DNA from: Cohaesibacter haloalkalitolerans
Lineage (GTDB): Bacteria > Pseudomonadota > Alphaproteobacteria > Rhizobiales > Cohaesibacteraceae
NCBI RefSeq assembly: GCF_003574655.1
Contig: NZ_QNUM01000002.1
Span: 186,001 to 250,000, forward strand
Length of the DNA: 64,000 bases
Direction of reading: 5' to 3'
A program made the position numbers and the translations under genes. The notes under the pieces are model-generated. The model was not told where the DNA came from. It did not search any database and was given only the letters and a program-made list of their open reading frames with translations. Positions 36,897-42,633 of this stretch are shown here, one piece after another (the first letter of the stretch is position 1; each line of letters starts with the position of its first letter).

Positions 36897-37106
36897 TCAG
36901 TAGTGGGGAGGCTTTTCATTGCCGGGAGGGCTGATATTCTCCTCCAGCTCGACCAGAGTATCCTGCAGCGACGAGACCTGCCGGGACAGGCGGTCAATCA
37001 TTTCCCACTGTCGGGACACCATTTGCGAGAGGTCGTCGATTGTATTGGCCTGATGCGTGATCTGGATTTCCAGATCAACGACACGGCTTTCGAGTTCCTG
37101 TGTCAA
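36897..37106 (-). CDS. slyX: SlyX-family small coiled-coil protein
   Basis: A 69-residue coiled-coil protein. The pattern (LESRVVDLEIQITHQANTIDDLSQMVSRQ, LSRQVSSLQDTL, C-terminal PPHY) is the SlyX signature, including the terminal PPHY. The start is a TTG codon at 37106 with GGGAGAAGTCAA before it. Function of SlyX is not established. It diverges from the Rrf2 regulator gene. Confidence 0.88.
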   Translation of the reverse strand: MTQELESRVVDLEIQITHQANTIDDLSQMVSRQWEMIDRLSRQVSSLQDTLVELEENISPPGNEKPPHY

Positions 37107-37291: not shown

Positions 37292-37774
37292 ATGAGATTG
37301 GCCAAAGGAACCGATTTTGCCTATCGGATTTTAATGCTGGTCGCCATGAATGACGAGCGCAGCCTGACGGTGGAAACCGTTGCCTCCGCTTTGCGCCTGT
37401 CGCGCACGCATTGCATGAAGCTGATTGCCAAGCTTTCCAACAACGGCTTCCTGAAAACGACGCGCGGTCGCGGCGGCGGGCTCGTATTGGGCATGGCAGC
37501 CGAGGACATCCATATGGGTGATGTTGCCAAGGCGATGGAAGCCGATTTCGGCGTGGTGGAATGTCTCTGCCCGCGCTGCAATGATGATCCCCAGCCGGAC
37601 TGCCCGATGTTTGGCGGCTGCGAGATGTCGCGTGTGATGTCGCGCTCGATCAAGCAGTTTGTTGCTAGCCTCAACGAGCACACGCTGGCAGAAATTGTCG
37701 AGAAATCGAAAAACTCCAAACATCTTGTTCTCGAGCCAGACGGCACCCTCGTGCCATGTTCACCGGCAGAATAG
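37292..37774 (+). CDS. Rrf2-family transcriptional regulator, NsrR-like
   Basis: Winged-helix regulator of 160 aa that probably binds an Fe-S cluster. The N-terminal helix-turn-helix (TVETVASALRLSRTHCMKLIAKLSNNGFLKTTRGRGGGLVL) is characteristic. Cysteines at 91, 93, 96, 104 and 110 in CLCPRCNDDPQPDCPMFGGC provide the cluster ligands; the spacing is close to NsrR (three ligands near 91/96/102) but has two additional cysteines. NsrR senses nitric oxide; IscR/RirA-type roles cannot be excluded. GAGGT precedes the ATG. No NO-detoxification gene adjoins. Confidence 0.85.
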   Translation: MRLAKGTDFAYRILMLVAMNDERSLTVETVASALRLSRTHCMKLIAKLSNNGFLKTTRGRGGGLVLGMAAEDIHMGDVAKAMEADFGVVECLCPRCNDDPQPDCPMFGGCEMSRVMSRSIKQFVASLNEHTLAEIVEKSKNSKHLVLEPDGTLVPCSPAE

Positions 37775-37897
37775 GGATTTTCCCCTCTTTTCCGCCCGTG
37801 ATGTGATTCTGACAGGCTCAGGCTCTTTTTGCGCAACCGCGTCCAATGTAAGGTTGTTCCGTCTCGACTCAGCAATCTTGACGGCAGGAGACCTTTC

Positions 37898-38362
37898 ATG
37901 AGCCCGATGAAAACCAAGGACCGGGGAAAGCACTTCGGATTTCTGGTTCGCAAAGCCATCACGGAGAGCAAGCGGTATGACATTGCGTCTGTCGCCAAGG
38001 GCACAGACATGAGCTATCAGTCGCTCTACCAACGGCTACAAGGAACCACCCCTTTTTCCGCAGATGAAATCCGGCGGCTGATCGCCTTCTTCCCGGACCC
38101 TTCGCTGGTTGGCTATCTGTTGAAAGGGACACCGTTTGTTGCAGCAGAGCGGCTGGAGGCCGAGGACGGCGACAGCGAGGACCATATCTTTCAGGCAGCC
38201 CATCGCATCGTGTTCGAAGCCTCCGACGTTCTGGAAGCCATTGATCAGGCTCTCAAGGATCGCCGCATCGATCATCGCGAAGCGGCGACCATCATGCAGG
38301 CCATCGACGATGCCGAGCGCGGCCTGATCTCGTTGAGGGAATTCGTTGCTGGCATGAAATGA
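37898..38362 (+). CDS. Phage CII (CP76)-like DNA-binding protein
   Basis: A 154-residue soluble protein. The N-terminal half (YDIASVAKGTDMSYQSLYQRLQG, DEIRRLIAFFPDPSLVGYLL) resembles the helix-turn-helix of the phage regulatory CII/CP76 family. The C-terminal half (VLEAIDQALKDRRIDHREAATIM) is helical like the rest of such proteins. GGCAGGAG precedes the ATG at 37898. It lies between the Rrf2 gene and the Cas6-like gene on the same strand, 182 bp from the latter. A repressor or phage-derived regulator role is inference. No other phage gene is near. Confidence 0.55.
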   Translation: MSPMKTKDRGKHFGFLVRKAITESKRYDIASVAKGTDMSYQSLYQRLQGTTPFSADEIRRLIAFFPDPSLVGYLLKGTPFVAAERLEAEDGDSEDHIFQAAHRIVFEASDVLEAIDQALKDRRIDHREAATIMQAIDDAERGLISLREFVAGMK

Positions 38363-38425: not shown

Positions 38426-38453
38426 GATTAAAATTCACCCTCCGGTTTTAATC
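38426..38453 (+). promoter_or_regulatory. Inverted repeat upstream of the Cas6-like gene
   Basis: GATTAAAA / TTTTAATC arms (8 bp) around a 12-nt GC-rich loop, about 92 bp before the Cas6-like start. Could be an operator or an RNA hairpin in the leader. Confidence 0.5.
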
Positions 38454-38544
38454 GACAGCGGCCACTCGTCTCACCAATTATAGCAATAGAAGAACGGCGC
38501 TGGCGGTCAATCCGTTCGTTCCCCATGTTATCAAGGTGAGCATC

Positions 38545-39555
38545 GTGAACAAGATTTCTTCAAAGGGCTTTGACGCCCCCTCTCCATTCCCGACAGTTCT
38601 GACGGCACCGGCCATCGCACCCAGTGGCATCGAGTTGCAGCAGCTGACCCGACAGGCCACCATTGGCTGCAGTTTTGACAGTTTCATTCAGAACATCACG
38701 ATACGCGACATCATTCTGGAATGCGAAGGAGACGGGCCGCTCGCCCAGCATCCGGCTTTTCCCGGCGCCGTTCGTCAGGCTATCGGATCCCAGCTGATGC
38801 AGACAGCCTCCCGTGAAGCCTTGGCCGGTCTGCCTTGCCCGTGGAGCCCAGCCTGCGGCTTTCAGGTCTTTTTCAATGGTATCAAGGGCTCCGGCAGCAT
38901 GGAGCAACAGCAACACGGTGACGGCCTGACGCCACCATGGGTATTGCGTGGCGAGACGGCGGATGCCTCTAGTGTACGGATAACGCTGCGGCTTTTCGGT
39001 CTTGGACTGCTCTGGAGCAGCGATCTGGCCGATGCCTGCCACCGCGCCGTGGAACAAGGCATCTTCATTGGCGGTATCGGACCGGTGTGCGAGGGGGTGT
39101 TGATCCGCTCAACAGAATCCGTCTGGTCCGGGTTCGAGGATGCCCCCGCCAATGCCGAACGGGCAATGGTCAATTTCAAGACCCCATTTCACTGCATTGA
39201 GACTGACGATGCTCCCTCGCTCGGTGCGCAATTCATGCAGAGCCTTGTCGATCGCGCCTGCGAGCTCGCACGTTGGCACGGCCTTACCCTAGCTGATGAG
39301 CTTACTTCGTTCAGGGCTGTTGCAAGGGATTGCCGTTATGATGAGAGCGGGTTGACCTCCCTTCAATGGAATCGGGCTGTCAGCCAGAGGCGCAGTGCCT
39401 CCATTGCGATGCAAGGCCAGACCGGCCTCATGCAGATCCTGCTGCCCGAAGAGGGCCGCCAGCAAATCATCCAGTTGCTCCGCATGGGGGAACTGCTACA
39501 CACCGGCCCGAAATTGGCATTTGGCCAGGGCCGCTATGAGTTGTTCCTTGTCTAA
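38545..39555 (+). CDS. Orphan Cas6-like RAMP protein (COG5551-type)
   Basis: A 336-residue protein whose C-terminal half resembles Cas6, the CRISPR precursor-RNA endoribonuclease. Visible features: LTPPWVLRGE (about 128-137) and LRLFGLGLLW (148-157), matching the usual PPW and LTLFG blocks. VNFKTPF (209-215) and LTSLQWNRAVSQRRSASIAMQGQTG (270-294) are like the W-R-x-S-x-RQ region. The hallmark LLRMGELLHTGPKLAFGQGRYEL (311-333) contains the G-rich RAMP loop and a conserved His. I chose GTG 38545 because AAGGTGAG precedes it; GTG 38536 is an alternative. No CRISPR array or other cas gene is visible in the window. RNA processing outside CRISPR is possible but unproven. Confidence 0.72.
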   Translation: MNKISSKGFDAPSPFPTVLTAPAIAPSGIELQQLTRQATIGCSFDSFIQNITIRDIILECEGDGPLAQHPAFPGAVRQAIGSQLMQTASREALAGLPCPWSPACGFQVFFNGIKGSGSMEQQQHGDGLTPPWVLRGETADASSVRITLRLFGLGLLWSSDLADACHRAVEQGIFIGGIGPVCEGVLIRSTESVWSGFEDAPANAERAMVNFKTPFHCIETDDAPSLGAQFMQSLVDRACELARWHGLTLADELTSFRAVARDCRYDESGLTSLQWNRAVSQRRSASIAMQGQTGLMQILLPEEGRQQIIQLLRMGELLHTGPKLAFGQGRYELFLV

Positions 39556-41125: not shown

Positions 41126-42291
41126 TCCTAGGGGATTTCATCCAGGTCGAGCACCGTCAGTGAATGGGCGGCTCGCGTGAATGCCCAAGGCATCTCTCAG
41201 CGATGCATGCGCTGATGCTCGATGAAAATCAAGACCGCGCCCATGTTGGGGCCTTTTCTCCCCACAACCATCGGTAATCAAAAATAATGACCCGGTGGGT
41301 TAAAAAATGCATAACGCATGGACGAGACACAACCCGGAGAAACAGTCTAAGACACTCTACACCTATAAGGGAAGTGCATTTATTGCGCATCTGCTTGTCT
41401 AGATTTCCATTCAAATTCAAACCAAACCATAGCATTGAGGCATGCCAAGCAATTCCACCTATTATTCTTTGAATAAAAATCAATAAATACTATTTATCTC
41501 AGCATATAATTTAAAATCTCAACGCAACAATCCTATTTAAACGATATATACACAAATTTAATCTGACCAATATTTCGCAAAAGACAAAAGTAATATTTAT
41601 TTTTTCAATCAAAAAGACACCTAACTCGATAAGGAAAATAAATATTTGCATTTTATAACTACCCAAAATCAATCTTATACCAAACATCCAAATTAGAAGG
41701 ACTATGGAAATTCAAATAAATAGCGAATATAGTCAAAGACAAGAAAGGCCAAAAACAAAAGATGCCGACGGTGTCAGTCCCCCAACAAGACACTAAAAGA
41801 GCATAATATACGGTCTTTCCAAAGAACGGTCCCCACACACATACCGTCACTAGAGGTCGTCATCCGACGGCCTCTTGTTCTTTTTGGCTCTCCCAACTGC
41901 AATCATTGGCTGCCAACAGCGGATCTGGCGAGGCCGACGGGTGCCATTGTCTGCGCGACCGCAAATTGGTCACAGGTTCAATTTATGCGAGCAATCTGGA
42001 CGGATGTCCAAGGATGGCGTCTGAAAAAATCTTCCCCCTTGTACGAACTTTCCACAAGATACTTGATTATATCTCAAAGATGCTTTATTCGTGTCGTCAT
42101 CATCATGAGAAGGGCTGACGCCCTCGCCAACCTGCCAACCGCGGCAAGGTGGCACCTGTACGGGGATGTGGCGGCATCTTTGCAAACCGCGAAGATGGAC
42201 GCAACTCAGCGGAGTTCCCATACCTGTTGTCGTCAGTCTTCCAAACCCGTGCATGGGCGTTTTCCCATGGGCCTGTTAGGAAGGAAACACA
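41126..42291. other. Long gene-free region with AT-rich island
   Basis: 1.17 kb. The segment about 41400-41850 is strongly AT-rich against a GC-rich genome. Reading frames here (for example 41229-41483 minus, 41906-42118 plus) have no ribosome-binding site and unlikely composition. No tRNA, integrase or repeat was seen. The flanking 41850-42290 has normal composition and carries the start of the next gene's leader. Confidence 0.55.
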
Positions 42292-42633
42292 ATGTTTGAA
42301 GCAGTCGATCAGAGTTTCGATTTTCCTGTCACTCACGCCTCCAGCCTTGCAAAGGAAACGGAAAGCAGGAGCGAGATCAAAACCACAAAGGCGCCAAGCG
42401 AGGCGACACTTGAGGTTTTGAAAGCAGGCTTCCGTACACGTGTGATGTCCTACCGCTCTGCCTATGATCTGGGCGCGCGTAGCGGGCTTTCCCTTTCCAG
42501 CCTCAAAAGCCGCACCGAGCAGAGCGCTCGCCTCATTCAGGCAGGCCTTGGCTATGCTGTCGATGAAACCGTGTTCGCAACACTGGTCTTCCATTATCCG
42601 GAACTGGCAAAAGCCCTGTCGCGTCAGCGCTAG
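42292..42633 (+). CDS. Small hypothetical protein
   Basis: A 113-residue protein, start ATG 42292 with a very good AGGAAGGAAACACA site. The N-terminal 40 residues are polar and probably disordered. The rest is helical (AYDLGARSGLSLSSLKSRTEQSARLIQAGLGY) with a helix-turn-helix-like look, and it ends DETVFATLVFHYPELAKALS. No family recognised. It converges on the NagZ-like gene. Codon use is normal for the genome, so I consider it real. A DNA-binding role is a guess. Confidence 0.6.
   Translation: MFEAVDQSFDFPVTHASSLAKETESRSEIKTTKAPSEATLEVLKAGFRTRVMSYRSAYDLGARSGLSLSSLKSRTEQSARLIQAGLGYAVDETVFATLVFHYPELAKALSRQR

What the first reader, a model, noticed from the sequence alone, without database searches (positions are those of the whole stretch)
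38545..39555. Orphan Cas6-like RAMP protein away from any CRISPR locus
The C-terminal half carries blocks seen in COG5551-type Cas6 proteins, ending in a G-rich LLRMGELLHTG...FGQGRYEL motif with the conserved His region. No CRISPR repeat array, cas1/2, cas5/7/8 or Cas10 is visible in this 64-kb window, and the gene sits next to a phage-CII-like protein and an inverted repeat. It may be a domesticated RNA-processing enzyme, or a remnant. Its N-terminal 110 residues do not match the usual Cas6 start in an obvious way.
Basis: partly seen in the sequence, partly recalled or inferred. Interest (0 to 1): 0.85.

Follow-up and report, generated by a model that had tools for sequence, protein, structure and literature searches.

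The report
Clade-wide orphan Cas6 without CRISPR
A group of marine bacteria keeps a CRISPR-type RNA-cutting protein, under strong selection and paired with a phage-type regulator, at a site with no CRISPR system nearby, which suggests that it has been taken over for another RNA task.

Summary
ORF 38545-39555 (+, GTG start, 336 aa) is a near full-length Cas6 homologue: PADLOC Cas6 E 2.3e-17; hhalign 100% against CRISPR-linked relatives over residues 21-336, N-terminus included. It is not a remnant. Of 18 genomes of the window's genus (Cohaesibacter group), 14 carry the orthologue at one site, slyX / Rrf2 / CII-like (CP76) / cas6; one copy has an in-frame stop. The other 4 lack both cas6 and the CII-like gene; in the 2 whose site was read, slyX-Rrf2 stands without the pair. 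dN/dS is 0.06-0.18. The orphans are one clade (100/100); a hisS tree fits one gain, with weak support. The window's genome shows no Cas1, no RAMP and no Cas3 above cut-off; 9 of 14 carriers lack Cas1. Repeat arrays lie beside 11 of 12 other relatives scanned, beside 0 of 14 orphans. Upstream of cas6 all 14 loci have a TTAAAA-N11-13-TTTTAA-type element (perfect in 10) over a promoter-like -35. Best reading: a Cas6 recruited as a CRISPR-independent RNA-binding or RNA-processing enzyme, probably switched by its CII-like partner. Target RNA, cleavage and regulator binding are inferred; isolated arrays elsewhere in the genome were not excluded.

The parts
38545..39555 (+). orphan cas6-like gene, 336 aa, GTG start
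   Evidence: PADLOC Cas6 E 2.3e-17; hhalign prob 100% to CRISPR-linked relatives; start from orthologues; dN/dS 0.064-0.181 in 10 computable of 11 chosen pairs
37898..38362 (+). CII-like (Phage_CP76, PF06892) regulator gene, 154 aa, partner of cas6
   Evidence: PF06892 in 14 of 14 orthologues; PHROG CII-like activator E 3.5e-13; present in exactly the 14 genomes with orphan cas6
38428..38456 (+). conserved element TTAAAATTCACCCTCCGGTTTTAATCGAC; dyad TTAAAA-N12-TTTTAA
   Evidence: 13 of 14 loci by one pattern, the 14th (G297) with one change; perfect dyad in 10 of 14; absent from the two non-carrier sites read; the exact form once in the own genome
38452..38481 (+). promoter-like site TCGACA-18-AATTAT overlapped by the conserved element
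   Evidence: 9 of 12 consensus positions; 3 such sites found in the region against a mean of 1.7 in shuffles, so weak alone; hexamer TCGACA in 9 of 14 loci and a one- or two-base variant in 5
37292..37774 (+). Rrf2-family regulator gene, fixed neighbour, also present without cas6
   Evidence: PF02082 E 4.9e-27; in all 14 carrier loci and in G239, G273
36897..37106 (-). slyX, fixed neighbour marking the site
   Evidence: PF04102 E 1.3e-20

Best explanation
A Cas6 of the lineage that works with type III CRISPR systems was gained, most likely once, together with a CII-like DNA-binding protein, in the ancestor of one Cohaesibacter clade, and has been kept as a chromosomal two-gene unit independent of CRISPR immunity. 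Shown: homology over nearly the full length, monophyly, fixed synteny, all-or-none occurrence with the CII-like gene, purifying selection, no recognisable class 1 partner genes in this genome, and a conserved element in front of cas6. Inferred: the CII-like protein (or another regulator) binds the TTAAAA...TTTTAA element over the -35 and switches cas6 on; the Cas6 protein then binds and probably cuts a particular non-CRISPR RNA. The target RNA is unknown.
For: Cas6 profiles. The 13 orphans form one side of a branch, 100/100. cas6 and CP76 in the same 14 of 18 genus genomes; slyX-Rrf2 site without the pair in G239 and G273. dN/dS 0.064-0.181 for cas6 (10 computable of 11 chosen pairs), 0.008-0.117 for cp76 (11 pairs). 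Cas6 distances follow his/GH3 distances over 13 genomes, r 0.945. hisS tree consistent with one gain. Of 14 carriers, 9 have no Cas1, 12 no RAMP, 13 no Cas3 above cut-off. Arrays beside 11 of 12 other relatives scanned, 0 of 14 orphan loci. R77, H319 and the glycine-rich loop kept in 13 of 13. Element.
Against: No RNA target, no expression data, no activity. The structure model was poor (pLDDT 41), so the active site could not be placed. The glycine after R77, invariant in 8 of 8 CRISPR-type relatives, is glutamine in 13 of 13 orphans, and another invariant Ala is Gly, so activity may have changed or been lost. One carrier (G119) has an in-frame stop, so the gene is not indispensable. The joint occurrence with CP76 may be one event, not many. 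The carrier/non-carrier split has support of only 0.59 on hisS. 5 of 14 carriers have a Cas1. A distant relative in G667 sits alone among housekeeping-like genes but with two short arrays, so a lone Cas6 can serve isolated arrays, and isolated arrays in the rest of this genome were not searched.
Confidence: 0.58

Rival explanations
1. The pair is a small defence or phage-sensing unit: the CII-like protein responds to phage or prophage state and releases Cas6, which cuts phage or host RNA.
For: CII-like regulators are phage-type (PF06892, PHROG 101); Cas6 comes from immunity; the two are present or absent together.
Against: Syntenic inheritance that follows housekeeping genes is unlike the patchy spread usual for defence genes (recalled); no match in 50,697 phage records for either gene.
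Confidence: 0.17
2. Stand-alone Cas6 that matures crRNA in trans from isolated CRISPR arrays elsewhere in the genomes.
For: Core residues are kept; arrays far from the gene were not searched; 5 of 14 carriers have Cas1; G667 has a lone Cas6 relative with two short arrays and no cas-like neighbour seen.
Against: The own genome has no Cas1, no RAMP and no Cas3 above cut-off, so crRNAs would have no recognisable class 1 effector; the two carriers with type III loci have a second Cas6 there.
Confidence: 0.12
3. Cas6 has lost catalysis and now acts as an RNA-binding regulator or chaperone.
For: Fixed Gly-to-Gln difference beside R77 in 13 of 13; Cas6 distances grow about 3.6 times as fast as those of the his/GH3 set (slope).
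Against: R77, H319 and the G-rich loop are kept in 13 of 13.
Confidence: 0.1
4. Decaying remnant of a lost CRISPR-Cas locus.
For: One of 14 copies has an in-frame stop.
Against: 13 of 14 frames open, dN/dS 0.064-0.181, conserved upstream element.
Confidence: 0.03

Closest known systems
Cas6 of alphaproteobacterial CRISPR loci with TIGR03986 RAMP, Cas1 and Cas2 (Azospirillum lipoferum 4B AZO_p2, Tistrella mobilis pTM1)
   Same: Homology over 83-86% of the query, 26-30% identity; shared R77, L84, P131, G152, P214, R237, W244, W275, G321, G327, G329
   Different: Those lie with cas1, cas2, RAMP genes and repeat arrays; the orphan has none, has Q instead of G after R77, and sits with a CII-like gene
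Cas6 domain of RT-Cas1 fusions (Marinomonas MMB-1, PDB 6dd5; Thiomicrospira Cas6-RT-Cas1)
   Same: Weak profile match at the C-terminal end incl. the glycine-rich loop, E 0.0011. Processing residue R37 reported for the Thiomicrospira protein (PMC8102632, passages read) may correspond to R77 here (inference, not aligned)
   Different: Orphan is not fused to RT or Cas1; MMB-1 has no His at the H319 position
solo-Cas4
   Different: Different protein (Cas4-family endonuclease of the adaptation module)
CII-type phage activators (Phage_CP76 family)
   Same: PF06892 and PHROG 101 matches of the partner gene
   Different: Chromosomal and beside cas6 rather than in a phage control region; no phage record matches it

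Membership tests
Cas6 (COG5551 / PF10040 protein family) | significant match to Cas6 profiles over most of the protein | tested here: met
   PADLOC E 2.3e-17, residues 69-333, 13 of 13 orthologues; hhalign 100%; PF10040 borderline, 23 to 25.4 bits against 25; NCBIfam none
Cas6 (COG5551 / PF10040 protein family) | C-terminal glycine-rich loop | tested here: met
   G321, G327, G329 invariant in 13 orphans and 8 CRISPR-type relatives
Cas6 (COG5551 / PF10040 protein family) | pair of ferredoxin-like (RRM) folds | tested here: inconclusive
   Model pLDDT 41; order of strands and helices could fit two such units but the confidence is too low
Cas6 (COG5551 / PF10040 protein family) | catalytic residues | tested here: inconclusive
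   R77 and H319 kept in 13 of 13; no solved relative close enough to place the active site
Cas6 (COG5551 / PF10040 protein family) | endoribonuclease activity on a repeat hairpin | not testable with these tools
   needs protein
CRISPR-Cas system (class 1) component | adjacent array and cas genes, or Cas1/RAMP/Cas3 in the genome | tested here: not met
CRISPR-Cas system (class 1) component | isolated arrays elsewhere in the genome | not tested
Phage_CP76 / CII-like regulator (partner gene) | PF06892 match above cut-off | tested here: met
   46 bits against 26; 14 of 14 orthologues match at E 0.001 or better
Phage_CP76 / CII-like regulator (partner gene) | binds and activates a promoter | not testable with these tools
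   only a conserved element over a -35-like hexamer

The most novel reading that the evidence does not exclude
The first clade-wide exaptation of Cas6: a CRISPR-free two-gene switch in which a CII-type activator turns on a Cas6 endoribonuclease that cuts specific host (or phage) RNAs as a standing layer of post-transcriptional regulation.
Probability: 0.35. Interest if true: 0.85.

Novelty: new variant of a known kind. Interest (0 to 1): 0.62.

Why it matters
Cas6 is normally read as a mark of CRISPR immunity. A Cas6 kept under purifying selection across a clade without recognisable class 1 partners, at a fixed site and with its own regulator gene, would show that the crRNA-maturing enzyme can be recruited to other RNA work. 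It makes a direct test possible: find the RNA it binds. It also warns that annotation by Cas6 alone overcalls CRISPR systems.

Tried and rejected
Structure prediction from the window protein plus L070 and L071 gave pLDDT 41, so no fold search was run on it. phmmer against PDB found nothing, nor did the CRISPR-type profile A5. The idea that the upstream element is a relic CRISPR repeat or an RNA hairpin substrate was dropped: it does not resemble by eye the repeats of the relatives' arrays; the hairpin region of G000 folds no better than shuffles (z -0.82); its 10-bp hairpin is predicted in full only in G000 and G302, with shorter related stems in G303, G149, G298, G219 and G084 and none in 6 others (G297 was not folded), whereas the sequence is kept; a DNA operator fits better. 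Mobile spread: no phage match for either gene, no relative in viral contigs. A Rhizobium CP76 homologue (39%) has no cas6 match within 5 kb. Three copies of a 20-mer flagged at the edge of L067 belong to an 80-bp tandem repeat, not a CRISPR array. The Cas3 profile rings in 18 of 18 genus genomes, but above cut-off only in G303; the weak matches are probably other helicases. The first genome-contig scan with the single protein found no relative; the scan with alignment A1 found two. Literature: phrase searches on orphan, solo, solitary, lone or domesticated Cas6 and on Cohaesibacter with CRISPR listed no paper that by title or start of abstract describes a CRISPR-free Cas6; of one candidate, PMC5571608, I read the passages: its Cas6-like proteins belong to type I-E sets. 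Only openly licensed PMC text is held.

Full report
Where it is. The window is G000:C17:186001-250000 of a 5.0-Mb genome in 24 contigs. Two relatives with names are Cohaesibacter marisflavi (L070) and C. celericrescens (L071); their contig lengths equal those of G298:C27 and G297:C51, so the genus is Cohaesibacter or its close group.

The protein. ORF 38545-39555 encodes 336 aa. It matches four PADLOC Cas6 profiles (best E 2.3e-17), as do 13 of 13 orthologues given to the scan (the 14th, G119, was left out for its stop). Pfam PF10040 is borderline (23 bits; 25.4 bits; cut-off 25) and NCBIfam gives none. Profile-profile comparison with eight CRISPR-type relatives gives probability 100% and E 8e-41 over residues 21-336. 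Those eight were found by similarity to this protein, but they match PADLOC Cas6 in 8 of 8 on their own. A PDB profile search finds the MMB-1 Cas6 at E 0.0011, C-terminal end only.

No CRISPR around it. In the own genome PF10040 rings once, Cas1 not at all, RAMPs not at all, and Cas3 only below cut-off (best 42 bits against 102). A k-mer script for repeats at CRISPR spacing found none in the window; in the 13 other orphan loci of about 20 kb it flagged only an 80-bp tandem repeat in L067. The same script found arrays in 11 of 12 loci with other Cas6 relatives: L025-L030 and L069, L090, L091, L102 and L104; the miss, L103, is a 6.4-kb contig. In the seven arrays whose units were printed, the repeats agree and the stretches between them differ. 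The rest of the own genome was not scanned for arrays.

Distribution. In a 297-genome sample of the order, 13 matched; 9 of these are of the own genus and 4 are distant, beside arrays. In 385 genomes of the class, 5 matched including the own; the other four are one whose match starts at the same coordinate as the named Tistrella plasmid hit (G561), a near copy (G464), G414 and G667. In the 18 genus genomes held, 15 matched: 14 carry the orphan, and G300 only a copy on the contig that holds its RAMPs and a Cas1. G119 and G175 carry both an orphan and a type III copy. Cas1 is absent from 9 of the 14 carriers and present in G119, G149, G175, G197 and G303.

A case against a simple story. In G667 a Cas6 relative (PADLOC E 6.8e-17; 335 aa) lies among genes that read by eye as hflK/hflC, a DegP-type protease, serB and miaA, with three repeats on one side and two on the other, and no cas-like gene seen by eye in the ORFs of 200 aa or more listed around it. 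So a lone Cas6 with small arrays exists in another lineage. The Cohaesibacter orphans show no such arrays, but the case keeps the in-trans rival alive.

The pair. The CII-like gene (PF06892 in 14 of 14) occurs in exactly the same 14 genomes, always between Rrf2 and cas6. G239 and G273 keep slyX and Rrf2 with neither gene; there a weakly globin-like gene (below cut-off) lies beside Rrf2. In G299 and G300 no close Rrf2 match was found, so their site was not read. A hisS tree rooted with G028 and including G044 groups the four non-carriers (0.964) apart from the carriers, but the split itself has support 0.59. One gain, or one loss in the sister group, both fit. So the joint occurrence should not be counted as many independent events.

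Selection. dN/dS for cas6 lies between 0.064 and 0.181 in 10 computable of 11 chosen pairs; for cp76 between 0.008 and 0.117 in 11 pairs. Cas6 tree distances follow the his/GH3 set over 13 genomes (r 0.945, slope 3.6; shared ancestry inflates r). The orphans are one side of a branch with 100/100 support against eight CRISPR-type sequences, seven of which are flagged as long branches.

Residues. R77, L84, P131, G152, P214, R237, W244, W275, G321, G327 and G329 are invariant in 13 orphans and 8 relatives; H319 in 13 and 7. The glycine after R77 in 8 of 8 relatives is glutamine in 13 of 13 orphans, and the Ala two residues after G152 is Gly. In the Thiomicrospira Cas6-RT-Cas1 protein, R37 is called an active-site residue; processing is 97% in the wild type and 12% in the R37 mutant (PMC8102632, passages read). 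That R77 is its equivalent is my inference from its place near the first helix; no alignment was obtained. The structure model is too weak to help.

The upstream element. All 14 loci have TTAAAA (ATAAAA in G149), 11-13 bases, then TTTTAATCGAC or a near form; the perfect dyad is in 10 of 14; one pattern finds 13, G297 differs at one base, and neither G239 nor G273 has it. The G000 form occurs once in the own genome. It overlaps a promoter-like TCGACA-18-AATTAT (weak on its own, 3 sites against 1.7 expected). RNA folding of the element is not kept across the loci, which favours DNA binding. A second dyad, CAACC-N13-GGTTG or a near form, lies before cp76 in 11 of 14 by pattern. That CII proteins bind over -35 regions is recalled, not tested.

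Verdict. The orphan Cas6 is real and maintained. It stands outside any class 1 CRISPR system recognisable in this genome. The most likely role is a CRISPR-independent RNA-binding or processing enzyme, likely under the control of its CII-like partner; the target is unknown.

Noticed in passing
L104:9139-10680 (G667:C58): Lone Cas6 relative (L104:9443-10450, -) among housekeeping-like genes, flanked by two short arrays (2 and 3 copies of GGCTGGCCAGCCTGTCCGCA) with no cas-like neighbour seen by eye in the larger ORFs listed.
   Followed up: partly
window 42095-42199 (+): SAM-I/IV riboswitch (RF01725, 58.8 bits against 41.1) just upstream of ORF 42292-42633, a 113-aa protein without Pfam, NCBIfam or PHROG match whose likely homologues appear at the same place in several relatives by eye.
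   Followed up: partly
L087:9105-9722 and L088:3463-4068: In the non-carriers G239 and G273 the gene beside Rrf2 is weakly globin-like (E 0.003, below cut-off), at the site where carriers have CP76-cas6.
   Followed up: partly
   Followed up: no
L067:1-240: 80-bp unit repeated in tandem (three starts); looks like an array to a simple k-mer script but is not CRISPR.
   Followed up: yes
window 37774-37898, before the CII-like gene: Dyad CAACC-N13-GGTTG or near form, pattern found in 11 of 14 loci.
   Followed up: partly
L068 (G303:C1:4494000-4513900) and G303:C1:340262-341356: G303 has two Cas3 matches above cut-off and a repeat array beginning GTTTCGATCCACGCCTCCG, besides carrying the orphan cas6.
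   Followed up: no
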